Shown here: in pieces, positions 17,001-51,315 of the stretch
How the letters are laid out: every line of letters begins with the position of its first letter
Numbering within the stretch: the first letter of the stretch is position 1
Assembly (NCBI GenBank): GCA_019637855.1
Contig: JAHBUX010000007.1
Span: forward strand, 62,001-126,000
Reading direction: 5' to 3'
Origin: Bdellovibrionales bacterium
GTDB lineage: Bacteria > Bdellovibrionota > Bdellovibrionia > Bdellovibrionales > UBA1609
DNA length: 64,000 nt
Made by a program: the position numbers and the translations under genes
The notes under the pieces: generated by a model
Told to the model about the DNA's origin: nothing
The model's input: only the letters and a program-made list of their open reading frames with translations
Database searches by the model: none

Positions 17001-18085
17001 ACTCGAATTCAAATCGTCTTTCTAGAAACAACACGCTTGCGACCTACGACTCGCAAGACCGTTTGCTCAACTATGGCGGCTTAACTTTTACCTATACCAA
17101 CAATGGAGAAATCCGCACAAAAACGGATTCAGGCGATGTCACCACGTTTGACTATGATGTATTTGGCAACCTCAAGCGTGTGACCCTTCCTAATGGAAGG
17201 GCAATCTCCTACGTCGTGGATGCCTTAAACCGACGTGTTGCAAAGAAGGTAAACGGAACTCTTGTTCAAGGTTTCTTATACAAGGACGGCTTAAGACCGA
17301 TTGCCGAGTTGAATTCTCAGGGCCAGATTTCGAGCGTCTACGTATATGGCGTACGTTCGAACGTACCCGACTATATCGTCAAGCAAGGGGTGATTTACAA
17401 GATCATCTCAGACCATCTCGGCAGTCCTCGCTTGATCATTCGCGCTTCAGATCTTCAAGTCATGCAACGTTTGGAATACAACGAATTTGGCATGGTTGTT
17501 TCAGATTCCAATCCCGGATTTCAACCCTTTGGCTTCGCAGGCGGCCTCTATGATTCGGATACGGAACTCGTACGGTTTGGCGCGCGGGATTACGACCCTG
17601 AGACGGGGCGGTGGACGAGTAAGGATCCGATATTGTTTAATGGTGGGGATACGAACCTTTATGGGTACACTTTCAACGACCCAATCAATCTTATCGACCC
17701 GACTGGGCTGACATGGGAATACAACAATGGCACCGGTCAGTTGACCCATATTGACAATAATACGGGAGTACGGACGCCGGCTGGAACAGGGTATTCTGGA
17801 ACTGGTCAGGGAAGGAATAATCCTGATATGTCTCCAGTTAGCAATGTGGGACCAATCCCAACAGGTTCCTACACGATACGGCCACCTATCAACTCGCCAC
17901 AAACTGGCCCTAACGCACTTCCGCTGAATCCTAATTCAGGCACAAACACCTTTGGGCGCTCCGGCTTTCAGATACATGGCAATAACCCTTCGAACGACGC
18001 CTCTCATGGGTGTATAATCTTGCCACCTGGTGTTCGTAATCAGATAATTAATAGCGGCGACAATGATCTTAACGTGGTGAACTAA
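11081..18085 (+). CDS. Secreted RHS/YD-repeat polymorphic toxin with Tlde1-like C-terminal domain
   Basis: The protein has 2334 residues. It starts at TTG 11081 after GGGAG, with a signal peptide (residues 1-23). Two PKD domains follow (about 165-250 and 343-425), a carboxypeptidase-regulatory-like fold (about 483-560), NHL-type repeats (about 1000-1350) and YD repeats (about 1370-2150). The RHS core end is GARDYDPETGRWTSKDPI and NDPINLIDPTGL, after which the sequence turns variable, as in all RHS toxins. The last ~125 residues carry H2299 and C2311 in HGNNPSNDASHGCI, the active-site pattern of Tlde1/DUF2778 L,D-transpeptidase-like toxins, which attack peptidoglycan precursors in the periplasm. 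No PAAR or VgrG part is present, so export is Sec-dependent and delivery is unknown. The exported protein encoded next is the likely immunity factor. Confidence 0.88.
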   Translation: MGKITRKLVVLGFLFSSRYALATTPTPQVVFGPKVFRASILKPSYQNSGFSVSNPALSPGRLLITNGTGYVKPPNPCPRFDGRNLIQILTCNLSNLANVAKVALTRATDLEIVLNGHIVVAPQNFNIKTSQLILSVALQTNNEIKVKIRGLPTAYVTIQIDRTTSSNQAPLANFTVTPGPATDPLNYSFDGRTSSDPDGTLTSYLFDFGDGNQAQTSAANHRFDSIGTYNVTLTVTDNKGAQNSKVAQVNVQDTRPPILTINSPSEGANLNSTSVQISGSADEPLREVTARGEMLVLGADLKSFSGTVTLSPGANTIPFVATDLAGNSTTVNRHVTLSINRPPLASFTIKTKGGIAPLLATFDASQSTDPDGHSLTYAWDFGDGGTDVGAFVSHIFNSTGTFDVKLKVTDSAGESAIRTSQVVVTQANLPPDPTTIAPTISFKGVSLVSESLNFLITGTNPVQTGVLTGALDTRRQTLLRGRVLAANGQPLSAVQVSAIGQPQLGKTLTRTDGYFDLVINGGGAIHLEFLRNGYLPVHRRIESLWRDMNHITNVVMTPLDSKVTRIKLSSMSLQAVEGSVVTDERGPRKALVLSPAGNSASMILPGGGSVSTDNLSIRITEYTVGDNGRKAMLADLPPHSAYTYAIEMSADEAIAAGAVRIDFEKPLVYYVENFVGLAPGSAVPSGYYDRESVSWKAEEDGIIVKILSVQNGSATISFDGTSAATAQRISEFGITNAELAMLGSKYTAGQELWRIPIAHFSGWDFNYPFSLPPDATDPNGGPVLASNDLPDPNGPNLCQGSIIEVENQVLGESLAITGTPFRLMYRSDRVKGTPLANSIDIELAGDISSMPSLRSVLLNVTAAGNQFSQEFTNPTSYQKTTYSWDGRDAYGRTFFGARNAQVSIDFRYQGEYVGGAYDKIVRSFGQLSSGTGVSKAPIYGLIDVNRRYNVSLESKDSRVFGLGGWGIDAYHFYSPISQKVYRGDGRSTSLQQNNQVVETVIGDATWDGNGPITGADGTPASGAYINNPRRVRVAPNGDIYLVDTFNYRVMRIDRNGLIYRVFGGGTEPFSEGLPATSFNILSALNPELNDIAFSPSGELYYAQGSRIIKVDSAGIMHLVGGDGNLPSTVPAPGDGGLARDAKFHTIWEIKFGPDGSLYVMDGGDQRIRQIRPDGYIVAFAGGGEGGDGSRAQDARIAFPMSFAMSSDGMAYVAGSDLKVLRIRPDGIVETYLQGFFQDRNEITTPREIIAAPDGSLYILTHPDSNSLPNIILKVDPDKTITRIAGTDSGGFNGDGRLPTETQFLAPNGMALHPDGSLLIADTQNSRLRRIRSVLPAFSGGLTTIPSQDGSEYYFFSALGLHLETRDTLTGAIKYKFEHDSHSLLTKIHDRTGNVTEIVRDGSGMATEIISPFGHHTRFTSDANGYLQSVTNPMNEKYQMSYDGDTGLLLEFKDARQNSTTFNYDERGRLRRETRPNQGFLELLRADLQRPRKGYEVSRSTSQGYTARHLVENDATGNKMVQTWEDGGSGRFTALEGKHERKRRDQSIWNAHQAPDPIFGLQSSYYSAEATKLPSGLTQEVSRNRSAQFSSSSGLPVIESLSQATMINGKTYSAQYSGSNRLLRLSTPEGRLSQIQLDSIGRVSAYQIGGLEPVSLSFNAKGLLSQSQQGARRVQITYNAQGLIEETTNALNQKNQFSYDQAGRIESQQLPDGRSIGFSYDANGNLTGITPPGRPMHQFLLNAMNLVSSYLPPSLGATPINTIYSYNSDSQLTRVQRPDGQDVLLNYDSARAQLRSIQTSLGANSFNYSSVTGQLTSLSSYDGQNVALQYDGPFSRSESWSGVVAGFVTRDLNADFNVVKEDISGNIIAFTFDNDRLLKSAGQEQITRHATTAQVIATQLGGVNEAFTYNNFGELLTYSAPGFSSQLVRDNLGRVIQKTETVLSSTNVFEYGYDDTGRLTTVRQNGSNTSTYGYDSNSNRLSRNNTLATYDSQDRLLNYGGLTFTYTNNGEIRTKTDSGDVTTFDYDVFGNLKRVTLPNGRAISYVVDALNRRVAKKVNGTLVQGFLYKDGLRPIAELNSQGQISSVYVYGVRSNVPDYIVKQGVIYKIISDHLGSPRLIIRASDLQVMQRLEYNEFGMVVSDSNPGFQPFGFAGGLYDSDTELVRFGARDYDPETGRWTSKDPILFNGGDTNLYGYTFNDPINLIDPTGLTWEYNNGTGQLTHIDNNTGVRTPAGTGYSGTGQGRNNPDMSPVSNVGPIPTGSYTIRPPINSPQTGPNALPLNPNSGTNTFGRSGFQIHGNNPSNDASHGCIILPPGVRNQIINSGDNDLNVVN

Positions 18086-34613: not shown

Positions 34614-36545
34614 TTAGTTAACGTCTTTGTAGTCGGCGTCGATCACGTCATCACCGGACTTAGCACCGTCGGCAGAACCTTGAGCTCCGCCGGCGCCGCC
34701 ACCACCGTCGCCGCCTGTGCCGCCGCTGCCATCACCGCTCGCTTTGCTCTTTTCATAGAGCTTCGAGCTGACGCCATGGCTAGCTTGGGTCAGGGCATCC
34801 AACGCCGTCTTCAGCTCATCGCTAGAAGCCGAGGCGTTCGCCAATACGGTTTTTGCCTTCTCAACGGCCGCTTGCAGCGGCTGCACATCGCCTTCAGCCA
34901 GCTTATCCTTGTTATCGGCAATAAGCTTTTCGGTCTGATAGACCATGTTGTCCAAGTTGTTACGCTGCGAAATCGCTTCGCGGCGTTTCTTGTCCTCGTC
35001 GGCGTGCACTTCTGCATCACGCACCATGCGCTTGATGTCGTCTTCCGACAATCCAGACTTGGCGGTGATTTTGATCGCCTGCTCTTTGCCCGAACCCATG
35101 TCTTTAGCGGTTACGTGCAAGATACCGTTGGCATCAATATCAAACGTCACTTCAATCTGCGGAACGCCACGCGGTGACGGCGGAATGCCCGTCAATTCGA
35201 AACGTCCCAGCGCCTTGTTGTCGGTCGCCATTTCGCGCTCACCTTGCAGAACGTGGATGTCCACGCTCGACTGGTTATCGGCCGCAGTCGAAAAGATCTG
35301 CGACTTGCGCGACGGGATCGTGGTGTTGCGTTCGATCAGCTTGGTCATCACGCCACCCAAGGTCTCGATACCGAGAGAGAGCGGAGTCACGTCCAGCAAC
35401 AGAACGTCTTTCACTTCACCACCCAAGACACCACCTTGTACGGCGGCACCGATGGCCACGACTTCATCCGGGTTCACCGATTTGTTCGGCTCTTTGCCGA
35501 AGAAATCCTTCACCGCTTTTTGAATGGCGGGAATACGAGTGGAACCACCGACCAATACGACCTCGTCGATCTCCGACGGTTTAAGGCCTGCATCCGCCAA
35601 ACATTTGCGAACCGGCTCAACGGAGCGTTTAACCAGGTCTTCGGTCAGCTGCTCGAACTTTGAGCGCGTCAGTTTCATCGCCAAGTGTTTCGGACCGCTT
35701 TGATCGGCGGTGATAAACGGCAAGTTGATTTCCGTTTCCATAGCCGAGCTCAACTCGATCTTGGCTTTTTCGGCCGCTTCACGCAGGCGCTGCAAAGCCA
35801 TCTTGTCGTTCTTCAAGTCGATACCTTGGTCTTTTTTAAATTCGTCGATCATCCATACGAGGATTTTTTCGTCGAAGTTGTCACCGCCCAAGTGCGTATC
35901 GCCGTTGGTGGCTTTGACTTCCACGACATTGTCGCCGACTTCCAAAACCGAAATATCGAATGTACCGCCACCGAAATCGTAAATGGCGATTTTCTGATCG
36001 CCTTTTTTATCGAGTCCGTAGGCCAAAGCGGCTGCGGTCGGTTCGTTGATAATGCGCTTTACGTCCAAACCGGCGATGCGGCCTGCATCTTTGGTGGCTT
36101 GGCGTTGAGCATCGTTGAAGTAAGCGGGGACCGTGATCACGGCCTCTTTCACTTCTGAGCCCAAATAGTCTTCAGCGACTTTTTTCAGCTTAGCCAAAAC
36201 AGCGGCTGAAACTTCTTCCGGCGAAACGGTTTTGCCGCGCACTTCGAAGGCGCTGTCATTGCCCTTGGGAACAACTTTGTACGGAACGTACTTCAGCTCT
36301 TCTTTTACCTCTTCCGGACGACGACCGATAAAGCGCTTAGCCGAATAGATCGTGTTCTCGGGGTTGGTGACGGCTTGGCGCTTGGCGATTTGACCTGTCA
36401 GCTTCTCGCCGTCTTTTGTGTACGCCACAACGGAAGGGGTCGTGCGTGCACCCTCTTCATTCACTAAAACCTTAGGCGCGCCGCCTTCCATCACGGCCAC
36501 CACGGAATTCGTGGTCCCTAAGTCGATACCTATAATTTTACCCAT
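34614..36545 (-). CDS. dnaK: Chaperone DnaK (Hsp70)
   Basis: The protein has 643 residues, the normal length for DnaK. It starts [18 protein letters not shown], with the ATPase signatures [16 protein letters not shown] and [16 protein letters not shown], the linker [16 protein letters not shown], the substrate-binding domain, the helical lid, and a Gly-rich tail ending in [11 protein letters not shown]. It binds exposed hydrophobic peptides in an ATP cycle, with DnaJ and GrpE. AAGGAG precedes the ATG. It lies 131 bp downstream of dnaJ on the same strand, so dnaJ comes first, the reverse of the usual order; grpE and hrcA are not next to them. Confidence 0.99.
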
Positions 36546-36676
36546 TTCATTGCTCCTTAAAATTAAACTTCAAAATTCAAATCGTTGGCTGAGTTGGCCT
36601 CTACACGCCTAAATCTGTGCCGCCACCACCTTCCGTCAAGGTGATGGGGCCGTCTTTCTCGAATTAATACAGTGCG

Positions 36677-37780
36677 TTAAAGGCCGAAGAAGCCGGGCTT
36701 CTCTTTACCAGAGCCAGTCTTATGCTCCGCGATCTGCTTGAGCAGCTTCTCTTCGTCCTTGGAGAGCTTTTTGGGGATGGTCACCCGCGCGATAAAGATC
36801 AGGTCGCCGGCACGGGCGCTGCGTAGGCTGGGGAGCCCTTCTCCGCTGAGTTTCAGCTCTTGGCCGAATTGGCAGCCTTTGGGGATTGAGAGGGTCTTTT
36901 TGTCTTTGAGGGTTTCGACCTCAACGTCGCCACCTAGAATCGCCTGTAGGTAGGAGATCTCGACTTCGCCGTAGAGGTTGGTGCCGTCGCGTTCAAAGCG
37001 GGGATGGGGCTTCACGCGCAGTTCGACGTAAAGGTCGCCGGCGGGGGCGCCCTTGCTGCCGGACTCACCTTCTCCGGTCATGCGCAGTTGGGTTCCGTTG
37101 TCGACGCCGGCGGGAACGGTGACGAGGAGCTTTCTCTCCACCACTTCGCGGCCTTGGCCTTTACACTTTTTGCAGGGATTTTTGATGATGGTGCCGGTGC
37201 CGCGACAGGTGGGGCAGGTGGTGGCCATAGAGAAAAAACCTTGGGCACGAACCACTTGTCCCCGGCCTCCGCAGGCGGCGCAGGTCTCGACTTTGCTGCC
37301 CGCTTCAGCGCCAGAGCCATCGCAGGTTTTGCAATTGTCTTCGCATTGAAAGCTGATGGGCTTTTGGACGCCGTCGAGGACGTCGACCAGGTCGATCTCC
37401 ATGAGATAGCGAAGATCGGCTCCGCGACGGGGGCCTGTACCGCGACGAGCGCCTCCGCCACGACCTTGTTGACCGAAGAAGTCGCCAAAAATATCACCAA
37501 AGGCTTCAAATATATCGGAGGCGTTTTGGAAGTGAGGACCACCCATGCCGCCGGGGCCGTCGACGCCTTGGTGGCCAAAGCGGTCGTAGCGAGCGCGTTT
37601 GTCTTTGTCGCTGAGGACTTCATAGGCGCGCGCGCACTCTTTAAATTTCTCCTCAGCTTCTTTATCTCCGGGGTTTTTATCCGGATGAAACTGCATCGCC
37701 AGCCGGCGATAGGATTTCTTAATAGTGTCGCCGTCCGCTTCGCGCGTAACGCCAAGAATTTCGTAGAAGTCGCGTTTCAT
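36677..37780 (-). CDS. dnaJ: Co-chaperone DnaJ (Hsp40)
   Basis: The protein has 367 residues with the full type I layout: J domain with HPD ([10 protein letters not shown], about 32-41), a Gly/Phe region, four CxxCxGxG repeats ([32 protein letters not shown]) that bind two zinc ions, and the C-terminal substrate domains. It stimulates DnaK ATP hydrolysis and presents substrates. It lies upstream of dnaK; the gap holds a possible promoter (TTGACG) and an inverted CACC/GGTG stretch, so dnaK may be expressed both with and without dnaJ. Confidence 0.98.
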
Positions 37781-37859
37781 GTGGGGTGCTCCGCCTTTAT
37801 AAGTATGGGTTCGGGGCGGCGGGCGTCAAGGTCATTGAAGGCCGAACCGATCTCGATCT

Positions 37860-39089
37860 CTACAGGCTGTTTAAATAAAACTTCAGCTCGTCTTTCATTT
37901 GCTTGGTTTGGCCCATTAGTTCGCTTCCAATACCGTCAATTTCTTTTAGCGACGATTTAAGCGCTGTTTTGAAATCCATCAGGCCCTCCAACAACCCCAG
38001 AATGTCGGCTGATGCACCTTTCACTTTAACGGCTTCTACTTTGCCGGTTATGCCCACGATATCGAGTGCGGTCGTAAGTTTGCCAATCTCGCGGAAGATG
38101 CCCGTAAATTGCTGAAATACGGACTCAACAGCAGTGAGGCTTTTCTGAGTTTGCTCGATTCCCTTTTTCCCGAGACCTTGAAGCAGCGTCATTTCGAGGC
38201 TCTTGTCTAAGGGGGTCTCTTTTACTTCATTCGTGAAAAAATCAACCAGCTCTTTTGTCAGAATCAAATTACAAACATCAAACTGGCAGGTCTGAACGTT
38301 CTCTTTGATGGAGTTGCCAAGGTTTCCTGAGCTCAAAAACTTCTCTGTTTCTGCCTGAATCTGTTTAGAGATCTCGTCATATTGCGAAGAAACGATAGAA
38401 ATGGTCGCGGCCTCCTGACCTATTTTTGCCGCCTGAACTTCTAAGTTCAAAGGAACAAAAGCCACCTTTTGGTAGGCCAAAGATATTTCTTCACATTTCT
38501 TTTGTAGCTCTTGGCCAAGGCTTAAAATCTTTCTCAGTTTTAAAAGAGCACCGATGGGTTCAAGATCTAAAGATTGTTGGCGGCATTCAATCTCTTTTGT
38601 CAGAGCTTCAGTCATGAAATGGCTGTAGTCGTCGAAACCGAGCTTTTGTATTTCTTGAAGCAAGATTGCTTGCGAATCTTTGGGGGACAAACTTTGCGTC
38701 TTTTCCAACTCTAAAAGTTCGGCATATTTTTGTTTTACGACCTCAAAAATAGGACTGCTTGGCTTCAGTCGAATGGAAAGAAATCCGTCATCAATGGGTG
38801 AGGCCAAAGCATAGACCCAGTAATAAGAGCCATCTTTCGACTTGTTTACGACATAAGCACCGACGGGCTTGCCATTTAAAATCATTTCCCAGAACAAATG
38901 AAAGACCCCTCTTGGCATGGCAGGGTGTCTGATAATGTTATGAGGTCGTTTTAGAATTTCGTCCCATTCATATTTACTGACCCTTTGAAAAATCGAATTT
39001 GCGGATTGAATGATGCCTTTTCGATCTGTCCGCGAAAAAAATAGTTCATCAAATTTGAAATCACTTTCACGCTCAAAGAAGGAACTCAT
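37860..39089 (-). CDS. PAS-domain signalling protein (Aer-like, without membrane anchor)
   Basis: The protein has 409 residues. The N-terminal part (about 14-120) is a PAS domain of the Aer/MCP type: RTDRKGIIQSANSIFQRVS, then RHPAMPRGVFHLFWEMI and SKDGSYYWVYALASPI, the usual flavin-binding layout. The rest is long helices (coiled-coil), ending in an MCP-like helical region, but I cannot identify the conserved MCP hairpin tip (EIxxIVxxI-type). There is no transmembrane segment, so this is a soluble signalling protein, perhaps a cytoplasmic redox sensor. It has no obvious operon partner; the next genes upstream are a toxin-antitoxin pair. Confidence 0.8.
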   Translation of the reverse strand: MSSFFERESDFKFDELFFSRTDRKGIIQSANSIFQRVSKYEWDEILKRPHNIIRHPAMPRGVFHLFWEMILNGKPVGAYVVNKSKDGSYYWVYALASPIDDGFLSIRLKPSSPIFEVVKQKYAELLELEKTQSLSPKDSQAILLQEIQKLGFDDYSHFMTEALTKEIECRQQSLDLEPIGALLKLRKILSLGQELQKKCEEISLAYQKVAFVPLNLEVQAAKIGQEAATISIVSSQYDEISKQIQAETEKFLSSGNLGNSIKENVQTCQFDVCNLILTKELVDFFTNEVKETPLDKSLEMTLLQGLGKKGIEQTQKSLTAVESVFQQFTGIFREIGKLTTALDIVGITGKVEAVKVKGASADILGLLEGLMDFKTALKSSLKEIDGIGSELMGQTKQMKDELKFYLNSL

Positions 39090-39137
39090 GGTGCAACTCT
39101 TTTGTGAGATTTTTGGGATGACTCCGGCGACCTTGGA

Positions 39138-39431
39138 TTACGATGCACGAGGATTGTGTTTAAGACGTTTTCTGATGACTCGGAGACGCTCCTGGAGATC
39201 CTCGCGCTCAAAGCCGTTCGGGAACAGTATGAACTCCGGCCGCACGCCAAAAGCCGCTGCCAAAATAATAGCCCGCTCCTCACCCAGCCGAGACCGGTTA
39301 CTCTCGATGTTAGAAATGTTCGCTACGGCAATATCCGTGATTTCAGACAAGGTCTTTTGCGTCCACTCTTTTTTTAAGCGGAGTTCCTTTACCACCTGAC
39401 CAGGCGTAAGAACCGTGCGTTGCTTTCTCAT
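39138..39431 (-). CDS. HigA-like antitoxin (XRE family)
   Basis: The protein has 97 residues and one helix-turn-helix (VKELRLKKEWTQKTLSEITD, then VANISNIESNRS) with a C-terminal tail. ATG 39431 starts 1 base after the toxin stop, with a perfect AGGAGGAAG site inside the end of the toxin gene. The antitoxin binds the toxin and, with it, the operator in front of the operon. The toxin-first order is the mark of HigBA-type systems. Confidence 0.85.
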   Translation of the reverse strand: MRKQRTVLTPGQVVKELRLKKEWTQKTLSEITDIAVANISNIESNRSRLGEERAIILAAAFGVRPEFILFPNGFEREDLQERLRVIRKRLKHNPRAS

Positions 39432-39432
39432 T

Positions 39433-39729
39433 TTACTTCCTCCTATAGTCATGCGGCGTGACCCGCTCGACATTGACGACCTGGATCTCTCCGGATGTGG
39501 TCGCTCTATAAATCACCCGCCATTTCAAGTTCAGGCGCGAGGAGCGGTAACCTTGCCATTCCCCCCTCAGAGCCTCATCATGATATCCCTTGAAATTACG
39601 CAGAATAGTCACGCCATGCTCTTCCACCAACCTAGCCCAAACTTCGTAAGCCCCAACAATCTGAGCAGGTGCTTTATCGAGGTCCTTGGTTGCCTGTCGA
39701 GATTCTGTAATATGAACCAATCGGACCAC
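39433..39729 (-). CDS. HigB/RelE-type toxin (mRNA interferase)
   Basis: The protein has 98 residues and the RelE-like fold of HigB toxins: VHITESRQATKDLDKAPAQ, then WARLVEEHGVTILRNF, an SSRLNLKWRVIYRA core and the family end VVNVERVTPHDYRR. Such toxins cut mRNA on the ribosome. Its gene comes first and the antitoxin second. An inverted repeat at 39736-39768 overlaps the promoter region just upstream and is the expected operator. Confidence 0.87.
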   Translation of the reverse strand: MVRLVHITESRQATKDLDKAPAQIVGAYEVWARLVEEHGVTILRNFKGYHDEALRGEWQGYRSSRLNLKWRVIYRATTSGEIQVVNVERVTPHDYRRK

Positions 39730-39735
39730 TCCTAC

Positions 39736-39768
39736 TTATACTAAAATATAAGTTATACTTTAGTATAA
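39736..39768 (-). promoter_or_regulatory. Inverted-repeat operator of the toxin-antitoxin operon
   Basis: TTATACTAAA (39736-39745) and TTTAGTATAA (39759-39768) form a perfect 10-bp inverted repeat with a 13-base centre, starting 6 bp before the toxin start codon. It probably contains the promoter and is bound by the antitoxin. Confidence 0.72.
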
Positions 39769-39814
39769 TTCAAGGATTAAGTACAATATGGACGATCTAG
39801 CCTAAGCTAGCAAG

Positions 39815-39891
39815 CTTGCAGCGATTTCTGTCAGATCGTAAGGGTTCGCGTTTTTGTCCAAATTTTCCGAGCTTTCCAGATTTTTATGGCA
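39815..39891 (-). repeat. Element shared with the downstream end of the first RHS locus (copy 2)
   Basis: Read on the minus strand, this matches 18539-18620 in two blocks (GGAAAGCTCGGAAAATTTGG and GACA[AG]AAATCGCTGCAA). It is the last part of the second RHS locus, about 20 bp after the stop of its final gene. Confidence 0.7.
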
Positions 39892-39911
39892 AGTTTTTGG
39901 CAAGCTTCCCG

Positions 39912-40226
39912 TTAAGGATCAAAATAGAGCGCCATTGAAATGGCCAAATTCACTGTCGAGAATAGATATGCGATGAAATACGAAATCTTGACGTTGCGTT
40001 CGCTGGCATTGCCCTCATTTTGAATTCTCAGCGGGCCTAGGAGGTCCACCTTGGTTGGCTTGCGATGGAGATATAGGCAGCTCACGGCGAATACTAGCGC
40101 TCGGATCAAATTATATACCGCCATCGAATTAAGCGCCGACAAAAGCTGCATAACCGCCAACAAGACGGCTATGCCAGATAAGATAAGGACCAGTATATAT
40201 CCTTGCTTGTGCCTATTTTGGCTCAC
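39912..40226 (-). CDS. Small multi-pass membrane protein (possible immunity protein)
   Basis: The protein has 104 residues with three hydrophobic segments (about 10-30, 38-52 and 82-101), so it is an inner-membrane protein. It starts at GTG 40226 in a 4-base overlap (GTGA) with a small upstream frame, which means coupled translation. Such small membrane proteins at the end of RHS loci are often immunity proteins for lost or orphan tips, and this is my reading, but the sequence itself gives no family. Confidence 0.55.
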   Translation of the reverse strand: MSQNRHKQGYILVLILSGIAVLLAVMQLLSALNSMAVYNLIRALVFAVSCLYLHRKPTKVDLLGPLRIQNEGNASERNVKISYFIAYLFSTVNLAISMALYFDP

Positions 40227-40330
40227 AGGTTGTCCTCTGTTTGTGCTTTAACATGTCTTGTAAAGCCTGCGAAGTAGTTGGGTCGAGAAAAAAATCCGAA
40301 GGTTGGCGCAATACTATCCGTCAGGTTCAT
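40223..40330 (-). CDS. Short frame coupled to the small membrane protein (possible tip remnant)
   Basis: A 35-residue frame starts at ATG 40330 and ends on the start codon of the following membrane protein gene. The product contains TFGFFSRPNYFAGFTRHV. It has no signal or membrane segment. It could be the last part of a degraded RHS tip, or a leader peptide. The frame also continues upstream into the preceding gene, so the true start is unclear. Confidence 0.3.
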   Translation of the reverse strand: MNLTDSIAPTFGFFSRPNYFAGFTRHVKAQTEDNL

Positions 40331-40383
40331 TAACGACCTTTTCTGTGAAATCACTGCATAGGACGCAAATAATCCGTCGCCCT

Positions 40384-41577
40384 TCACTTTTTGAGTGAAT
40401 GATTGGCCGGCTGCTGGCCTTTTACTTCCGCATAACAGGTGCAGCACGTCTGATTTTTAAAGTTCTCTTGCTGGCAGACTCTATCGAGCGTCGCTGCTGC
40501 CATCACTTTATCCGACGGAAGCGCGCTCATATTGTCATACACATTGTAGCAGCTATGCGGATCAGCTTCGGAGCATGACTTCTTGACCAAATCCAATGCT
40601 CTGGCATCGTCGCCGATTACTGAAGCAAGATAGGAGGCCAACCGGCAATTGTAGTCGTTGTTCATCGCGCAATTTTGATTCCATTCGGCCTCCAATTCTT
40701 TGAAGGCCTTGCCTTGAAAAAGCCAAAAGCCAACAGAAATGTCATTGTAGCGAAGGGATTGCCTATCGCTTGTCTGCTTAATCTTCTCTACAAGTTGCAC
40801 ATGGTTTTGATATGTCCCGGCCATGCCCAGTATCATCATCACGAGTCCAGTGATGACAAAACCTTTCAGGCTTATAGTGTTGAAGGCCACATTACGGATG
40901 GCCAATTCCTCAGGTTCTTCATTCCCTGGACCAAGACAGCCAGTGCGCTTTTCGATTTCGTCTTTTAACCGATAGAGGGGATCAAGTGCTTTCAATTTGG
41001 ACGGAGTCTTAGCTTCTGGCAAATGACTTAGGTCATGAGGCTCATAGCAATAAATATTTGTCTTCCGGCCATCTTTGAATCTTATCTCTAACCCACCAAA
41101 CCTTTTTACGGTCGCCGAGAATATATCTGCCAAATAAAATGTGGTGTCCTTGTTGAAGCCCCAAATGCGTCTTCTAACAACCAGCAATGTTTTGCCGACG
41201 ATAACTTGAACCGTCATGCTGTATGCGATTGCCGCCATTAGTACGAAGTAAGCGGCACACACAAGAATTGCCAATTTCCGCTCCTCGGCCCGCGTCCAAT
41301 AGGCAAAAATTGTCAAAAGCACCAAGAAATGGAAGCCCGCCGCTAGGATGTAAGAAAAGAATTTTGGCGGCGTAATTACAATCAGATCCGTCGAAGGCGA
41401 AGGCTTTGGCTTACGGAGCAAACCGTGAACCAATAGCATCACCGTGGCGAAAACTATTCCAATAAAAAGAGATGGCAGCCAATCCGAAATCCACACAAAC
41501 GTAAGAACAAAAATCAGTATGTACACAGCGAAATGAGCAAGGCCCTCTTTTTGATATCTCAACAAAAATTGCTTCAT
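40384..41577 (-). CDS. Multi-pass membrane protein with cysteine-rich periplasmic repeat domain
   Basis: The protein has 397 residues. Four hydrophobic helices lie near 15-32, 35-50, 75-95 and 97-120, with another near 230-250. The C-terminal ~130 residues contain spaced cysteines (CAMNNDYNCRLASYL, CSEADPHSCYNVYD, then C in VCQQENFKNQTCCTC), which look like Sel1/cysteine-rich helix repeats closed by disulfide bonds. I do not recognise a named family. It lies among the small genes downstream of the second RHS gene and could be an immunity protein or cargo, but that is inference from place only. Confidence 0.62.
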   Translation of the reverse strand: MKQFLLRYQKEGLAHFAVYILIFVLTFVWISDWLPSLFIGIVFATVMLLVHGLLRKPKPSPSTDLIVITPPKFFSYILAAGFHFLVLLTIFAYWTRAEERKLAILVCAAYFVLMAAIAYSMTVQVIVGKTLLVVRRRIWGFNKDTTFYLADIFSATVKRFGGLEIRFKDGRKTNIYCYEPHDLSHLPEAKTPSKLKALDPLYRLKDEIEKRTGCLGPGNEEPEELAIRNVAFNTISLKGFVITGLVMMILGMAGTYQNHVQLVEKIKQTSDRQSLRYNDISVGFWLFQGKAFKELEAEWNQNCAMNNDYNCRLASYLASVIGDDARALDLVKKSCSEADPHSCYNVYDNMSALPSDKVMAAATLDRVCQQENFKNQTCCTCYAEVKGQQPANHSLKK

Positions 41578-41587
41578 CTAGCTCGCC

Positions 41588-42073
41588 TCAGCGCTTTTTC
41601 TCTAGATATTTCCTTACTTCTGCCAACCAAGGATCATCTGAATCTCTAATTTCTTCATAACCGAGCGGATGAAATGACTTTAAAAAAAGAAGGTATGTCT
41701 TACCTACCTCGAAGCCGACGGCAACCTCACAAGCTGAATTGTAGAGGGAGCGCATCTTTCCCTTAAAGTCCGCACCTGATGATGGAGCCTCAAAATTCTC
41801 GATTAATGCCCGAGTTGTTCTCTTCCCCTTCAAAACTTCAAGTACATCGAAGGTATAGTTCCACCCCCTACGATCACCTTGAGCTTTTTTCGGGGGCGAT
41901 ATTTCAATAGCTTTTGCCAACAAAATCGAATCCGTTCTCTTGACAAGCTCCGACTTTGACCAAAACCACGGATCGGTTTTCGGCAACCTGCATGCTGACG
42001 CGGGTAACACAAAGAACACCAGCATGGAAATGGTGGCAACAACCTTCATGTCACGGTCAAGGCTGCTTTTCAT
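41588..42073 (-). CDS. Exported protein, TIMP/netrin-like (possible)
   Basis: The protein has about 161 residues from ATG 42073, which has GAGAGA before it and lies inside the end of the upstream gene. A hydrophobic segment (VVATISMLVFFVLPASACR) ends in a cysteine just after a possible cleavage or lipobox site. The mature part has a pattern seen in bacterial netrin/TIMP-like domains: ILLAKAIEISPP, YTFDVLEVLKGKR, CEVAVGFEVGKTYLLFL. This is a weak resemblance. It overlaps the 82-residue membrane protein gene by 17 bp and is probably co-expressed. Confidence 0.58.
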   Translation of the reverse strand: MKSSLDRDMKVVATISMLVFFVLPASACRLPKTDPWFWSKSELVKRTDSILLAKAIEISPPKKAQGDRRGWNYTFDVLEVLKGKRTTRALIENFEAPSSGADFKGKMRSLYNSACEVAVGFEVGKTYLLFLKSFHPLGYEEIRDSDDPWLAEVRKYLEKKR

Positions 42074-42305
42074 GTATATCTCTCTTCGAATGTCGATATC
42101 GAGCAAAAAAATATGACCCCACTAAGACGGCACAGGCTGCTTGTATAGCGATAAAATATATTATTGCCGTTGAATCACAGATACTCCCCATGCCTTTGAT
42201 ATATACACAGCCATCTCCAAAAAAGTATTCTACAAAGTAAAAACCGCTTAAAAGACCACCAACAAACGCGAGGCCTGAATCAATATTCGTCCTCTGCTTC
42301 CTCAT
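42057..42305 (-). CDS. Small membrane protein next to an orphan RHS tip (likely immunity)
   Basis: The protein has 82 residues with two hydrophobic helices (about 10-28 and 45-66) and basic ends, so it is inserted in the inner membrane. It begins 3 bp after the stop of an orphan RHS C-terminal fragment, which is the spacing of toxin-immunity pairs. I read it as the immunity protein of that orphan tip. The family is not known to me. Confidence 0.58.
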   Translation of the reverse strand: MRKQRTNIDSGLAFVGGLLSGFYFVEYFFGDGCVYIKGMGSICDSTAIIYFIAIQAACAVLVGSYFFARYRHSKRDIHEKQP

Positions 42306-42308
42306 GAC

Positions 42309-42458
42309 TTACCTACACATACTTCCCATTTGGTTGCCAATAAAACTTCCAAATGCATCTGCCCCAGAGGTTGCTGGAGGGCTATCATTTCGCAACACCC
42401 GTCCAAGGTTATCGTAATCCATACGTTGCGCAACGGTTCCGATTGACCGACTGATCAA
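42309..42458 (-). pseudogene. Orphan RHS C-terminal tip fragment
   Basis: On the minus strand this frame reads GTVAQRMDYDNLGRVL, identical to the RHS core of the intact gene (at about 43435-43485), then switches to a different ending, RNDSPPATSGADAFGSFIG...MCR and stop. The upstream side ends at an in-frame stop. Core-homologous sequence with a new end and a following small membrane protein is the known layout of orphan RHS/CDI modules. The tip is very short (27 residues), so it is probably a decayed toxin. Confidence 0.75.
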
Positions 42459-42512
42459 CTATAATCTGGCCATCCCGAAAAATAGCGACTGACGATTTTG
42501 TAAGCAGATCTG

Positions 42513-42950
42513 TTATTCGGAAATATTGTAAATATCCCTCATGAACTCAGTTGATTCACAAACGATCTTTCCATTTACAGGGATAATGTGACCGACCAAT
42601 TCTTTCGGACATTTCCCTTCGTTGTATTGCCTCGCTGATTTCTCCCACCGCGCAGTAATCGTCTGAATTCCAACTTTCTTGGAAGTGGATTTTCTGGCGT
42701 GGATCTGCTCGGCCTTCCATTTGTTGAATAGATCCGTCAAACCTCCGCCAGGGTCATCAACCTCTAACCGACAAACAAAATGAGTTGCCGAGGCGATAGA
42801 CGCACGAGCAGCAGAACCATATTTTCTCGCACAATGGTTTTGCTCCTGCCCAATCGCCAAAACCTTCGCTTCATCTAGAGCAGCCGGGGCTTGCCCAATT
42901 GCACACCCAGTTGTCCAAAGAAACAGAAAACAGCCTAAAGATCGTATCAA
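42513..42950 (-). CDS. Exported lipoprotein-like protein coupled to the second RHS gene (likely immunity)
   Basis: The protein has about 145 residues from TTG 42950, which lies 8 bases after GGGAG and overlaps the stop of the RHS gene; TTG 42956 is an alternative start. The N-terminus is a signal with lipobox-like TTGC. The mature part has several cysteines and helices (HCARKYGSAARASIASATHF, FNKWKAEQ). Coupled location directly after an RHS toxin gene suggests an immunity role in the periplasm, as at the first RHS locus. The two immunity candidates do not resemble each other, as expected when tips differ. No family is recognised. Confidence 0.6.
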   Translation of the reverse strand: MIRSLGCFLFLWTTGCAIGQAPAALDEAKVLAIGQEQNHCARKYGSAARASIASATHFVCRLEVDDPGGGLTDLFNKWKAEQIHARKSTSKKVGIQTITARWEKSARQYNEGKCPKELVGHIIPVNGKIVCESTEFMRDIYNISE

Positions 42951-45900
42951 TTGCAATGCTCCCGAGGTTGCCCCGAAGGAATCTTAGGGTAGTCACTAGG
43001 ATGAATAATAGGAATCTGAGGGTCAATAGCCTCTATTGGGAACATGTATCTGGGAATTTTATCAAAGGGGCCCGGGCTGCGAGTAGTGGGTATCGGGCCT
43101 GGACTTCTTGGATCTGGAGAGCAAACTGAAGGGGCCAGAATACAAACATCCGCCACGCTTGTGTCGATTGCAGCATCATCCCTGCTCCTACTGGGATCAG
43201 TCATCTCTGGTGGAACGGCGAGACCGCTAGGATCCAAAAAGTTTATGGGATCGTTAAAGGTGTACCCATATAAGTTGGTATCCCGACCCTGAAAACGAAT
43301 GGGGTCTTTGTTAGTCCACCGCCCCATCTCAGCATCGTAGTCACGTGCTCCGAACCTAACCAACTTCGTCTCGTAATCATAAAGCCCACCAGCAAAACCA
43401 AATGGTTGGAAACCCGGGCTTGTATCTACCAACACCCGTCCAAGGTTATCGTAATCCATACGTTGCGCGACGGTTCCGTTTGAGTCGCGGACGACCATGC
43501 GAACACTGCCGAGATGGTCAGTGATAATCCGGTACTTCACGCCACTCTTCAGTACATAGTCGGGAACATGCGACTTAGTTCCGTAGATAAAGCGCGCTTT
43601 CAACGTGTTTGTCGAACTCAACTCACCGACAATTCTTAGACCATCAGCGTAAATATACTTAGACGTCACCGTTCCATTCTTTTTGCGAATGCTTCTGCGA
43701 TTGAACGCATCTGCCTCGTAAGTGATCGTACCCACCGATGGCACAACAACGCTCTTCAGATTACCCAATACATCGTAAACATAGGTCGTTGTCTGGGAAG
43801 TGAGAGTATTTACCTTCGTCGATAGCTCTCCATTCGCCGTGTAGGTGAAGTCCAGCAAGTTGTAGTCCGTAAGGCGGTCTTGAGCATCCACGACGGCGGT
43901 AAATGCTGTACCGGCCGTAGTGCCGCTTGTGCGGTTGCTGTTGTTGTCATAGGTGTAGGAGCTATAAGCCGCAGAACCCTTCGTCACCGTCGTGAGACGA
44001 CCCGAGTTGTCGTAGTTATAGTCGAAGCTGCTGGTGGTGCCATACATCACTTCGCTCAGCGTATCCACACGACCAAGAGCATCGCGTGTAATCGTGTATG
44101 AAAACAGCGGAGCCGTGCCATAAGTGGCTGCGTATCCGGTGAGTTCGCCGTAGCTATTGTAAGACCAAGTGTCGACGATATTGCCTAAGTCGGTGGCTTC
44201 GACGCGACCGCTGGCTGTTCCACGGGTGATCGCGAGAGCACCGGCCGTGGTAAGGAGTTCGTCGTTGTCGTAGGAGTAATTGACGGAGACAGCTGAGCCA
44301 GAAGCTGGAGCTACTTCGTCCGATTGAAGGTGTCGCAATGAATCGTATGTGGCCGAATAGTATCCAACCGACCCACTTGAATCCGAGATCGTATCACTAG
44401 TTAAAAAGCCATCTGAAAAACCTAGATAGTTGGTCACGGATGCAGGTGTAGCCCCCATACTCGTCCGCTCTGCCGAGGTATCAAAACCAAAAGTATAGTC
44501 ACCGTCTGGGGTAGTTATCTTTTCGAGAACGCCAGTGGACGAACCATATTCATAGACGATTGTTTGGGCATCCGGCCTGGTAATCTGAGTTAACTGCTTG
44601 TCGTTGTTGTACGTATAACCAGTATTCACAACCCCAACTCCCCCAAGCGTAGGGGGCTGATAGGTTCCCAAAAGCTCATGACCATTTAGCGACAAACCAT
44701 GTATTGACCGCCCCGGCGGGGTAACACCGACAACATTGCCATTGTCGTCATATGTAAACTGCACGGCACGAAGGTCGGGATATGTCACATAAGTGACTCG
44801 GCGAGATGAATCATAGGTGAGCGCAGTAGTTTCGCTAAGAGCATTTGTTACAGAGGTCAATAGTCCACTCGAAGTACCGTACGTAAGCGTGGTATTGCGC
44901 GTGCTTTGATCGACGGAAGTTAGTTTATCGTTAGTGTAGGTATAAGTGACCGCGTTGTCCGCCCCCCACTTGTCTGACACCAAGCGCTCGTAAGAATCAA
45001 TTTCCGTTTCTCTAACTCGCCCTTCAGGGGATGTAGTCGTAAAGGTCTTCGTGGTTGCATCGAAAACACTGACGGTGTCCTGACTATTTACCGTTTTGGT
45101 AGTAGTCAGCGTGCTGAATGAGAACGGCGCGGTAGACGGACTGGGAAAATCGGGGTTACTCGGAGACATGGTCTGTGAGACATTTATGTTTCTCGAACCG
45201 ACTACACGATATGACACCAGCTGCGCAGCATCTCCCCAACGGATATCACTAGAGAGGCCCGTGGACTGAGATACTCCCTTTGCGGTTTGATACTCGGTGC
45301 CGTAACTCTCTGAGGTCGTTCTAAGGGCACCGCTCGGAAGATAATCGTATCGTTGGTAGTTTCCAAGTAGGCCAGATCGAGTATTTGAAATGTAACTTGT
45401 TCTCGTACGACCGAGTGAAGTTAAATGACTTTGTTCATATTCAGATCGTGAGCTGCCAGTCTTGGTAAGATCAAATTCATACCCACCCGAGTGGCTATCA
45501 TTTACTAGAAGACCATCACCATCGTAGGTCAAAGTACTTACCTGACCCTCAGGTTTTGTAAATGTGGCTAGCAGCTCCGTTCCCGAGGCATAAGTCATTA
45601 CATAAGACGCACTTCCTGGAGAAGTCACAGTAGCTAACAAACCATTTCCATCAAGAGTAACAGAGGTTACGCCACCATCGGGCGCGGTAATTGACTGCAA
45701 TTCGCCTGTCACGCCGCGGGAAAACGTCGTCGTTCGTCCAAAGGGTTCGACAATTGATATTAACAAACCATTCCCATCATAGTTAAAGGTCTGCACCACC
45801 GTCCCCAAAAGACTCGTCCTTGTATAAAGGTGTTTGCCGGCGGAGTTGAACTCGTACACCTTAGATTGATCGGGCTCAATGACAAGAAAGTTACCGCCGC

Positions 45901-46675
45901 CCGCAGGAAGAGCGGAAGCAACGAGAACCGAGCCATCTCCCCTATATACTTGTCCCCGCACCTGATCGTAAAAATGGAACGCGCTCGGGAGCCAACCGCC
46001 AAAACCCAAAAGAGTGGCTTTTAGGGTGCCAACTGGAAAAGTAAACGTGAGTGGAGTTCCCGTGCCGTTAATAAGAGCAGTAACTGTTGCTTTTACTGAG
46101 CCTAAAACTGGAACGCCGCCAACTAGCCCGTTCCATTGATAACGGTAAGCGTAGTCCACGGCATTTGCCGCACTTCCGGAATCGACCACATTGCCCAAGA
46201 TAGACGTCGAAATGTCGAAATATGAAACAGCCGGATCAACGGGATTTCCCGCCAGAGGCATGTAGATCTTGTAGTCATTGATGAGATCTTTAGTCCAACG
46301 AGAAGAGTAGTTCAAAGTCCAATCTGCCCCTACAATTGGGATTGCCTCACCAAGCGTTTGACTATCAACATCCACTATTGAGCCGGACGAACAAGCCGGA
46401 CTTCTGGGCGACTGTATGCTTCCTTCCTGCGAACCAACAGATACAGGGATTGTCAAACCACAGTCAAAACATCCGCCAGCATAACCTTCACAGCCGACCA
46501 CATAAGTATACAAAGAAGATCCTTGGAAAAATCCTCTTCCACTCGTGGTTCGCCCACCAGCACACATAGAAGGGCAAGACTGCACACAAAGAGCATAGTC
46601 ATTGTAGTCATGGGCATAGGCCGGACCAACTACAAATGAGAAAAAGAACACCGCAAAATGAATCAGTCCAAGCAT
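42947..46675 (-). CDS. Secreted RHS/YD-repeat protein with unknown C-terminal tail
   Basis: The protein has about 1242 residues from ATG 46675 (GGGAG before it). A signal peptide (LIHFAVFFFSFVVGPAYA) is followed by a cysteine-rich part of about 60 residues, a linker domain, and many YD repeats. The RHS core end reads GARDYDAEMGRWTNKDPI and NDPINFLDPSGL. The last 90 residues are Pro-rich with two cysteines and match no toxin domain I know. It lacks the PKD and NHL parts of the first RHS protein, so it is half as long. It has an overlapping exported lipoprotein-like gene downstream. It may be a toxin, or a form with a worn-out tip. Confidence 0.85.
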   Translation of the reverse strand: MLGLIHFAVFFFSFVVGPAYAHDYNDYALCVQSCPSMCAGGRTTSGRGFFQGSSLYTYVVGCEGYAGGCFDCGLTIPVSVGSQEGSIQSPRSPACSSGSIVDVDSQTLGEAIPIVGADWTLNYSSRWTKDLINDYKIYMPLAGNPVDPAVSYFDISTSILGNVVDSGSAANAVDYAYRYQWNGLVGGVPVLGSVKATVTALINGTGTPLTFTFPVGTLKATLLGFGGWLPSAFHFYDQVRGQVYRGDGSVLVASALPAGGGNFLVIEPDQSKVYEFNSAGKHLYTRTSLLGTVVQTFNYDGNGLLISIVEPFGRTTTFSRGVTGELQSITAPDGGVTSVTLDGNGLLATVTSPGSASYVMTYASGTELLATFTKPEGQVSTLTYDGDGLLVNDSHSGGYEFDLTKTGSSRSEYEQSHLTSLGRTRTSYISNTRSGLLGNYQRYDYLPSGALRTTSESYGTEYQTAKGVSQSTGLSSDIRWGDAAQLVSYRVVGSRNINVSQTMSPSNPDFPSPSTAPFSFSTLTTTKTVNSQDTVSVFDATTKTFTTTSPEGRVRETEIDSYERLVSDKWGADNAVTYTYTNDKLTSVDQSTRNTTLTYGTSSGLLTSVTNALSETTALTYDSSRRVTYVTYPDLRAVQFTYDDNGNVVGVTPPGRSIHGLSLNGHELLGTYQPPTLGGVGVVNTGYTYNNDKQLTQITRPDAQTIVYEYGSSTGVLEKITTPDGDYTFGFDTSAERTSMGATPASVTNYLGFSDGFLTSDTISDSSGSVGYYSATYDSLRHLQSDEVAPASGSAVSVNYSYDNDELLTTAGALAITRGTASGRVEATDLGNIVDTWSYNSYGELTGYAATYGTAPLFSYTITRDALGRVDTLSEVMYGTTSSFDYNYDNSGRLTTVTKGSAAYSSYTYDNNSNRTSGTTAGTAFTAVVDAQDRLTDYNLLDFTYTANGELSTKVNTLTSQTTTYVYDVLGNLKSVVVPSVGTITYEADAFNRRSIRKKNGTVTSKYIYADGLRIVGELSSTNTLKARFIYGTKSHVPDYVLKSGVKYRIITDHLGSVRMVVRDSNGTVAQRMDYDNLGRVLVDTSPGFQPFGFAGGLYDYETKLVRFGARDYDAEMGRWTNKDPIRFQGRDTNLYGYTFNDPINFLDPSGLAVPPEMTDPSRSRDDAAIDTSVADVCILAPSVCSPDPRSPGPIPTTRSPGPFDKIPRYMFPIEAIDPQIPIIHPSDYPKIPSGQPREHCN

Positions 46676-46857
46676 ACCACTCCCCAAGGTGAGCATTTAT
46701 CATCAACTTTTGTTTATATTCGGAGATTGAATAGATTATTCAAATCAAGAAAGGTCGTGCTGAAATCAAAGTCCTCTATATTATAGATAACTGTTCATCC
46801 ATGCATGAACTCTTGAAATCGCGACAATTGTTCAGTCTGGACTCATAGCATAATTAG

Positions 46858-46940
46858 CTACCTGGAGGCGTGATGCCAACAACGTTACCGTTATTGTCAT
46901 AGTTGAATTGACAGCACGCAGATCAGGACAAGTCCAGATT
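46858..46940 (-). pseudogene. RHS core remnant upstream of the second RHS gene
   Basis: On the minus strand the sequence gives CPDLRAV, then after a one-base shift QFNYDNNGNVVGITPPG and a stop. The intact gene has YPDLRAVQFTYDDNGNVVGV at about 44711-44770. This is a decayed piece of another RHS gene. The rest of the gene-free stretch 46697-46997 is AT-rich and shows no open frame; it should hold the promoter of the intact RHS gene. Confidence 0.75.
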
Positions 46941-46997
46941 TATATTACAATTGTTTATAAACAGACCTTCATTCCATTTCCGAGCTTGGAACGAACT

Positions 46998-47759
46998 CTA
47001 CTTTGTCTTTTCTTTTTTTAGTTCACTTTCGAGAACGGAGATCCGCTTATCTAGTTCAATAAGACCAGGATGCCCCGGAGGGTAGGACTTCCTAAAGGAA
47101 ATAAGCGAAGAAAGCCCCAACTCCAATTGCCCCGTTTTCGTGTAGAGCCGAGCGGCTAGTGATCTCAACCAATCAGGTCCTCCGTGATTTGCCGCATGCT
47201 CAAGAAGCTGAGCTGCACGCGTTAGATTCTGTTTATCAAAGAGAAAATGATATGCAGCTCGATAATTAATGACCCAGTCATCGGGATATACCGTCAAACC
47301 TCGCTCGAAGATCGCAGACGCTCCTTCAAAGTCTTCAACTAGAACTGAAAGAGCCATTGTACCAGCGAGATATGGCATCTTGAACCGCTCGTCGACCTTC
47401 GTCACCGTATCGAGCATTTTAAAACCCCACGAATTATCGCAGTGTTTGTTACGCGGATTATAGTAACGATCGTCTACCGATCCATCCATAAATCCTTGAG
47501 GGGACGGGTTCATTTTAACAACGTCCAAGTAGGCATAACATGTGTCTGCGTCCTGTATCCAACGAAGCCAGAAGGTGTCGGCAACAGATTGACGAAACCC
47601 AAAAGTCATGTATTCAATTTTGTCGGGTGGAGGAACTAAAAAAACCCTATCCTGATTGAGGCCTGAGCGATTCAATAGTTGAACCGCGACAAAGCTGACT
47701 GTTGAACAAAGAATGTAAGGTAGAAGGCTTTTAGATATCACGACCCTATTTTGTGACAA
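46998..47759 (-). CDS. TPR-like envelope protein beside pilA
   Basis: The protein has 253 residues. An N-terminal hydrophobic helix (LLPYILCSTVSFVAVQLL) anchors it. The remainder is helix pairs of TPR type, e.g. LTVYPDDWVINYRAAYHFLF and ARLYTKTGQLELGLSSLISF, with a charged Lys/Glu end. The middle has several cysteines and aromatic residues. TPR proteins are scaffolds; in this position, directly downstream of the type IV pilin and on the same strand, a role in pilus assembly is plausible but not shown. A terminator lies between the two genes, so it probably has its own promoter or depends on read-through. Confidence 0.75.
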   Translation of the reverse strand: MSQNRVVISKSLLPYILCSTVSFVAVQLLNRSGLNQDRVFLVPPPDKIEYMTFGFRQSVADTFWLRWIQDADTCYAYLDVVKMNPSPQGFMDGSVDDRYYNPRNKHCDNSWGFKMLDTVTKVDERFKMPYLAGTMALSVLVEDFEGASAIFERGLTVYPDDWVINYRAAYHFLFDKQNLTRAAQLLEHAANHGGPDWLRSLAARLYTKTGQLELGLSSLISFRKSYPPGHPGLIELDKRISVLESELKKEKTK

Positions 47760-47779
47760 TAAATCAGATCTGAAAATAG

Positions 47780-47803
47780 AAAAGGCAGCTTGCGCTGCCT
47801 TTT
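47780..47803 (-). terminator. Terminator after pilA
   Basis: AAAAGGCAGC and GCTGCCTTTT form a perfect 10-bp stem with a 4-base loop, followed on the minus strand by CTATTTTC. It lies 25 bp after the pilin stop. Confidence 0.85.
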
Positions 47804-47828
47804 CTATTCATACAATTGTAATAAACGA

Positions 47829-48410
47829 CTAGTTGTTGACGTCGTCGTTGGCCGGAATCGGCTGAGTCAATTCTTTACGCTGGTTGATTTGCCAGATATC
47901 GATAGTTGCATCGCCATCGATGTCACCTTGAGCGCGAGCAGTAAACGCAGCATTGGGAGCCGCAACGATAGTGGATGCAGCTATTGCAGTCGGGTTAATC
48001 GGGGCAATGATTAAACGACAGTTAGCAGCTTGAGTACCAGCTGCACCGAATGCGCCCTGACCACATACTGCAGCCTGCATAGTGCTGATGTCCGCAGGAG
48101 TTACCGCACCCAGAGGGTGATTCACCGGCAAGGCGACGTTGGCACTAAAACCATGGTTGTAACGCAAAGTGCCTGTAGGCTGATAACCGATAGCGCCAAA
48201 TCCAGCGTTATATGCTTGCCACTCAGCAAAGAAAGCTCTTTCAGCAGAGTAAACTGCCGACAAGTTTGACTTCGCTTCCGACTGCTTCGATTTGGCAGTG
48301 AAACGTTGATAGTTCGGAACCGCGATAGCAGCCAAGATACCGATGATCGCCACAACGACCATCAACTCCACGAGCGAGAAGCCCTTATTGTTTCGTAATG
48401 AAACACGCAT
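47829..48410 (-). CDS. pilA: Type IV pilin PilA
   Basis: The protein has about 193 residues. The prepilin signature is textbook: a short basic leader, then KGFSLVELMVVVAIIGILAA with Glu5, and the long hydrophobic helix ending PNYQRF. The globular domain contains two cysteines (VCGQG, NCRLI) that probably form the pilin disulfide loop, and an acidic segment near the end (DIDGDATIDIW). GGGGG lies 8 bases before ATG 48410; the start at 48425 is less likely. Pilin forms the pilus filament used for attachment and motility; in Bdellovibrio-type predators type IV pili are needed for prey entry. Its own terminator follows. Confidence 0.93.
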   Translation of the reverse strand: MRVSLRNNKGFSLVELMVVVAIIGILAAIAVPNYQRFTAKSKQSEAKSNLSAVYSAERAFFAEWQAYNAGFGAIGYQPTGTLRYNHGFSANVALPVNHPLGAVTPADISTMQAAVCGQGAFGAAGTQAANCRLIIAPINPTAIAASTIVAAPNAAFTARAQGDIDGDATIDIWQINQRKELTQPIPANDDVNN

Positions 48411-48620
48411 GTTAGAAACCCCCATACGTTCTGTTAATTGTTATCGTACAAAATCAGTCTGCAACTACTCTTCGGAAAAGCATAGTCCGGCCTTAAGACT
48501 TTGGACCGCTTTTCCTCGACCTAAATCCAGCTACTTATAAGAAAAAGTGATTCGATTTTTTCCACAATTGCATGAATTCCGCCCCTACCCACCCCTTTGC
48601 CCCTAGGATATAAGACAACC

Positions 48621-48947
48621 ATGTCTGATGACCGCCCATTTCGAGACGGTGACGGCGACGAGCTCGTCATCACCAAAGTTAAGCCCAAAACGGAGAGACC
48701 TCCGCTTTACCGAGTCATTTTGCTCAATGACGACTTCACACCCATGGAATTCGTAATACTCATTCTAAAAAAATTCTTTGCGAAGTCCGACGGCGAAGCT
48801 GCGCAAGTCATGATGCAGGTCCACAATGACGGTGCCGGACTGGCAGGTGTATACACTTTCGAGGTTGCGGAGACCAAGGTCTACTCCGTGAATGAGTTTT
48901 CACGGAGACACAAGCACCCACTTAAGTGTATTATGGAGAAAGAATAA
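48621..48947 (+). CDS. clpS: ClpS adaptor
   Basis: The protein has 108 residues. The ClpS core is clear: YRVILLNDDFTPMEFVILIL, then KFFAKSDGEAAQVMMQVH and GVYTFEVAETKV, with a flexible acidic N-terminal extension. ClpS brings N-degron proteins to ClpA. It lies 43 bp upstream of clpA, the usual arrangement, and the two are surely co-transcribed. The start at ATG 48621 matches the family length; the frame is open 24 bp further upstream. Confidence 0.97.
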   Translation: MSDDRPFRDGDGDELVITKVKPKTERPPLYRVILLNDDFTPMEFVILILKKFFAKSDGEAAQVMMQVHNDGAGLAGVYTFEVAETKVYSVNEFSRRHKHPLKCIMEKE

Positions 48948-48990
48948 GAGCTCGCACCGATGCGGCTCTTAAGCCGACCTGGGGGTCCTT

Positions 48991-51315
<2,325 letters not shown>

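What the first reader, a model, noticed from the sequence alone, without database searches (positions are those of the whole stretch)
42309..42458. Orphan RHS tip with its own small membrane protein downstream of the second RHS gene
The fragment repeats the intact RHS core exactly at the protein level (GTVAQRMDYDNLGRVL) and then goes to a different end, followed 3 bp later by a gene for an 82-residue membrane protein. This is the layout of orphan toxin/immunity cassettes that can replace the active tip by recombination in the core. It points to recent tip exchange at this locus.
Basis: partly seen in the sequence, partly recalled or inferred. Interest (0 to 1): 0.72.

Follow-up and report, generated by a model that had tools for sequence, protein, structure and literature searches.

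The report
Scrap of RHS gene left downstream
A 54-letter piece of a large toxin-delivery (RHS) gene is repeated just downstream of it, most likely the decayed leftover of an old tip swap; such leftovers are already known, and this one no longer encodes a recognisable toxin tip.

Summary
The repeat is real. 42393-42446 matches 43430-43483 inside the RHS gene (42947-46696, minus strand) at 52 of 54 bases. The 16 residues GTVAQRMDYDNLGRVL are identical, and an 82-codon ORF with two predicted membrane segments starts 3 bp after the stop. But the fragment is not an orphan tip in the usual sense. It leaves the core at GRVL, about 65 codons before the conserved DPSG end where RHS tips begin. It has no start signal, and ends after 27 residues without coding-like composition or relatives. 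In related genomes 29 of 34 orphan core fragments reach the core end; this one does not. Neither its tail nor the small membrane protein was found, fused or alone, in relatives. The RHS gene sits at a site (clpA-pilin-TPR-[RHS]-dnaJ-dnaK) that carries RHS genes with different tips in other families of the order, and is empty in two congeners. Best reading: a decayed core remnant of an old tip displacement, possibly retaining an old immunity gene. Enterobacterial precedents are published. Recent tip exchange is plausible but unproven. Low interest.

The parts
42947..46696 (-). RHS gene (P0001, 1249 aa): N-terminal signal-like hydrophobic stretch, YD/RHS repeats, RHS-associated core, 90-aa Pro-rich C-terminal tip
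   Evidence: Pfam TEN_YD-shell and RHS_repeat, NCBIfam Rhs_assc_core 1082-1159
43430..43483 (-). copy of the repeated block inside the RHS gene
43220..43429 (-). conserved end of the RHS core (VDTSPGFQPFGFAGG...DPSG), absent from the fragment
   Evidence: alignment of relatives
42950..43219 (-). variable tip of the RHS protein (about 90 aa, no known domain)
42513..42956 (-). P0003, up to 147 aa, signal-peptide-like start, overlaps the RHS stop codon; candidate immunity gene of the current tip; no convincing relatives
42393..42446 (-). repeated core block in the fragment, 52/54 bp identical to 43430-43483
42309..42392 (-). 27-codon tail (RNDSPPATSGADAFGSFIGNQMGSMCR) plus stop; composition not coding-like, no relatives
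42057..42305 (-). P0002, 82 aa, two hydrophobic stretches; possible orphan immunity gene, weak coding signal, no convincing relatives
41588..42073 (-). P0004, hydrophobic signal-like start; next ORF in the array, overlaps P0002 by 17 bp
40384..41577 (-). P0005, multi-pass membrane protein, function unknown

Best explanation
The fragment is a decayed scrap of RHS core, left when the 3' end of this RHS gene was displaced. In the published model (Jackson 2009) a circle carrying a core piece, a new tip and its immunity gene recombines into the core; the current core end, tip and P0003 would be the newcomer, and the second copy of the 54-bp block marks the far junction. The old core end and most of the old tip were then lost by deletion (inferred). 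What remains is the block, 27 codons of uncertain origin, and perhaps the old immunity gene (P0002). The fragment itself is probably not translated and is not an active toxin or usable spare tip.
For: Clean 52/54-bp direct repeat with unrelated or barely related flanks. It lies just past the RHS gene and its overlapping downstream ORF. No start signal, and a tail without coding-like composition. Orphan arrays with near-identical core pieces are common in relatives, and another member of the family has an isolated 38-bp core scrap without a core end at the far end of its array (L063 7157-7194). RHS genes at the same dnaJ/dnaK site in other families carry different tips and neighbours. Published E. 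coli loci include a core fragment without any obvious tip (PMC2935791), and V. cholerae arrays keep old immunity genes after effector loss (PMC5361080).
Against: The required deletion is not seen; no intermediate or sister strain exists in the data. P0002 has no homolog and a weak coding signal, so it may not be an immunity gene, or a gene at all. The current tip is not a recognised toxin.
Confidence: 0.6

Rival explanations
1. Short illegitimate duplication or conversion: 54 bp of the core were copied downstream without any tip exchange, and the ORF and P0002 neighbour are accidental.
For: Block is short and clean at both ends; flanks show at most marginal similarity to core (empirical fractions 0.05-0.13 upstream, 0.02 to no signal downstream); the tail and P0002 have weak or absent coding signal.
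Against: The copy lies in the expected place for a displaced end (directly beyond the RHS gene and its overlapping ORF), on the same strand, and relatives show displaced core pieces at such places.
Confidence: 0.25
2. A genuine orphan toxin/immunity cassette: the 49-aa ORF is a spare tip and P0002 its immunity protein, usable by recombination in the core.
For: Stop-to-start spacing of 3 bp, membrane-protein neighbour; Salmonella orphan tips can be activated by recombination (PMC3967940).
Against: No conserved core end and only 27 residues of tail; a recombinant would lose the DPSG segment; homology is 54 bp, against 522 bp at 95% in the Salmonella case; no relative carries the tail.
Confidence: 0.07
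3. The fragment is older, decayed RHS core whose 54-bp block was kept similar to the live gene by gene conversion, so the high identity does not date the event.
For: Marginal similarity of both flanks to the adjoining core when frameshifts are allowed.
Against: Flank similarity is not significant enough to rely on.
Confidence: 0.08

Closest known systems
Dissociated rhs tips / C-terminal displacement in Enterobacteriaceae (Jackson et al. 2009, PMC2935791)
   Same: Core piece nearly identical to the upstream rhs gene, downstream of it on the same strand, fragment without start signal; two E. coli strains there have a core fragment without any obvious tip.
   Different: Those with tips keep the conserved core end and a recognisable tip; here the piece is 54 bp, internal to the core, with a 27-codon tail.
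Salmonella Typhimurium LT2 rhs main/orphan pair (Koskiniemi et al. 2014, PMC3967940)
   Same: Main rhs gene plus downstream fragment and small ORF.
   Different: There 522 bp at 95% identity and a working orphan toxin with immunity; here 54 bp and no toxin domain.
Orphan immunity gene arrays of V. cholerae T6SS clusters (PMC5361080)
   Same: Old effector largely gone, old immunity gene possibly kept behind a new effector-immunity pair.
   Different: No T6SS sheath family (VipB, PF05943) found in this genome; P0002 is not shown to be an immunity gene.

Membership tests
RHS protein (for P0001) | YD/RHS repeats and RHS-associated core ending in the DPxG segment, then a variable C-terminus | tested here: met
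Orphan rhs tip/immunity module | partial core nearly identical to the upstream gene | tested here: met
   52/54 bp
Orphan rhs tip/immunity module | core piece runs to the conserved core end (DPxG) | tested here: not met
   fragment leaves the core at GRVL (core position 129; DPSGL starts at 195); 29 of 34 orphan pieces in fetched relatives reach the end
Orphan rhs tip/immunity module | distinct tip of toxin-domain size | tested here: not met
   27 residues, no family, no relatives
Orphan rhs tip/immunity module | adjacent cognate immunity gene | tested here: inconclusive
   P0002 3 bp downstream, two hydrophobic stretches, but weak coding signal and no convincing homologs
Orphan rhs tip/immunity module | same tip found on a full-length rhs gene elsewhere | tested here: not met
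   not in 140 genomes of the order
T6SS-delivered Rhs effector | T6SS in the genome | tested here: not met
   VipB (PF05943) absent from a 99.98% complete genome; only this one component was searched

The most novel reading that the evidence does not exclude
P0002 is an expressed orphan immunity protein of an unseen membrane-protein family, kept after its toxin was erased, and the 54-bp block marks the crossover point of the swap, which would show that RHS tip displacement in this order can use very short homology upstream of the conserved core end.
Probability: 0.12. Interest if true: 0.4.

Novelty: new member of a known kind. Interest (0 to 1): 0.2.

Why it matters
It adds one case of RHS locus turnover outside Enterobacteria, at a chromosomal site (clpA/dnaJ/dnaK) where RHS genes recur across families of a Bdellovibrio-related order. 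It warns that a short core repeat plus a small membrane ORF is not enough to call an orphan toxin/immunity cassette.

Tried and rejected
Extending the repeat: anchored frameshift-aware profile alignment and DNA alignment of the fragment's flanks against the adjoining core gave only marginal signals, so by-eye resemblances upstream (YKIVS..., IIVDQS) and downstream (DAFGSFIG vs QPFGFAGG) are not claimed. Searches for relatives of P0002 in the order, class and phylum and in viral contigs gave nothing convincing; likewise P0003, whose one weak hit (L044) is in an unrelated-looking protein. An AlphaFold model of P0003 from a single sequence was too poor to search with (pLDDT 49). Comparing nearest relatives of the core before and after the block was uninformative because all relatives are distant. 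PADLOC gave no hits. One call failed through a wrong frame, one through a short search term.

Full report
The observation. On the minus strand, downstream of the 1249-aa RHS gene (42947-46696) and of P0003 (42513-42956), lies the ORF 42309-42458. Its GTVAQRMDYDNLGRVL equals residues 1074-1089 of the RHS protein. At DNA level 42393-42446 matches 43430-43483 at 52 of 54 positions, with 1037 bp between the starts. In the whole genome only the RHS gene itself gives such a match. P0002 starts 3 bp after the stop.

What the fragment lacks. RHS tips start after the conserved core end. In P0001 this is the segment from VDTSPGFQPFGFAGG to DPSG (43220-43429). The fragment leaves the core at GRVL, before that segment, and continues for 27 codons. 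Nothing resembling a toxin domain follows. A recombination through the 54-bp block would give an RHS protein without its core end. By established knowledge of RHS proteins the core end is needed for the closed shell and the self-cleavage that frees the tip; I did not test this here.

Flanks of the block. An anchored, frameshift-tolerant comparison with a profile of 28 core sequences (two from the window, the rest from relatives) gave scores reached by 13% (upstream) and 2% (downstream) of random pieces of the window. A plain DNA comparison gave 5-7% upstream and no useful signal downstream. The flanks may include decayed core, but this is not established.

Is it coding? A hexamer measure trained on long ORFs of the window puts the 27-codon tail well inside the range of wrong frames, the 49-aa ORF low, and P0002 lower than all other genes checked around it. 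Untrained genes also score lower than the training genes, so this is only suggestive. P0002 has an AGG 6 nt before its ATG (sequence). The 49-aa ORF starts with TTG and has no such motif. P0003 overlaps the RHS stop codon.

Relatives. RHS genes in the same order often carry downstream core pieces. Of 34 pieces classed as orphans in the fetched regions, 29 run to the core end, most of them continuing for tens to over a hundred codons. That count includes a few truncated genes, some loci from other phyla, and one contig present twice (L025 and L067). A close parallel to the present case is a 38-bp scrap at L063 7157-7194, in another genus of the same family, at the end of an array of three canonical orphan pieces. 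Neither the fragment's tail, P0002 nor P0003 has a convincing relative in the genomes searched (140 in the order; 368 in the phylum for P0002 and P0003).

The site. The RHS gene lies in clpA-pilin-TPR-[RHS ... HTH, PAS]-dnaJ-dnaK. In congeners G001 and G003 the clpA-TPR and dnaJ-dnaK blocks sit close together with no RHS gene; G001 has another gene of 346 aa between them. In G002 the two halves are on different contigs, and no RHS match was found in that genome. In other families RHS genes occupy the same neighbourhood: G036 (TPR-RHS-dnaJ-dnaK), G030 (TPR-RHS-HTH-dnaJ-dnaK), G061 (dnaJ-RHS-dnaK) and Bdellovibrio sp. BIN15 (clpA-pilin-TPR-dnaJ-RHS-RHS). The tips and following small genes differ among those compared. 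The site is therefore either an old home of RHS genes with losses, or a repeated target; the data do not separate these.

Age. clpA differs between congeners by about 25% at DNA level. At that rate, two or fewer differences in 54 bases would have a chance of about 2e-5. So the duplication probably postdates the split from the congeners, unless the block was held similar by conversion. 'Recent' is fair in that limited sense.

Mechanism. Shown: a near-identical core block repeated downstream; absence of core end and tip from the second copy; variable tips at this site across families. Inferred: insertion of the current core end, tip and P0003 by recombination in the core (model of PMC2935791), then deletion within the displaced end. 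Possible: P0002 is the old immunity gene, as in V. cholerae arrays (PMC5361080). Not supported: a ready-to-use orphan toxin cassette as in Salmonella LT2, which has 522 bp of homology and a working toxin (PMC3967940).

Delivery. The genome has no match to the T6SS sheath family VipB, and P0001 begins with a signal-like hydrophobic stretch, so export by another route is likely (inference).

Verdict. A real repeat, best read as a decayed remnant of RHS tip displacement, of a known kind. Interest is low.

Noticed in passing
34614-51315: RHS genes recur at the clpA-pilin-TPR-dnaJ-dnaK site in several families of the order, with different tips each time, while two congeners have an empty site.
   Followed up: partly
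11081-18085: The first RHS gene (2334 aa) has a teneurin-like layout (PKD, TTR-like, NHL, YD-shell) with a C-terminal Tlde1 (L,D-transpeptidase-like) domain.
   Followed up: no
L063 7157-7194: Isolated 38-bp core scrap (92% identical to an orphan core upstream) at the end of a three-member orphan array.
   Followed up: partly
L076 8038-8084 and 10935-10981: A 47-bp repeat (85%) lies directly before an orphan core piece and again 2.9 kb downstream; possible cassette boundary.
   Followed up: no
39736-39768: Near-perfect inverted repeat (16-nt arms, 1-nt loop) upstream of the HTH gene 39138-39473; possible operator.
   Followed up: no
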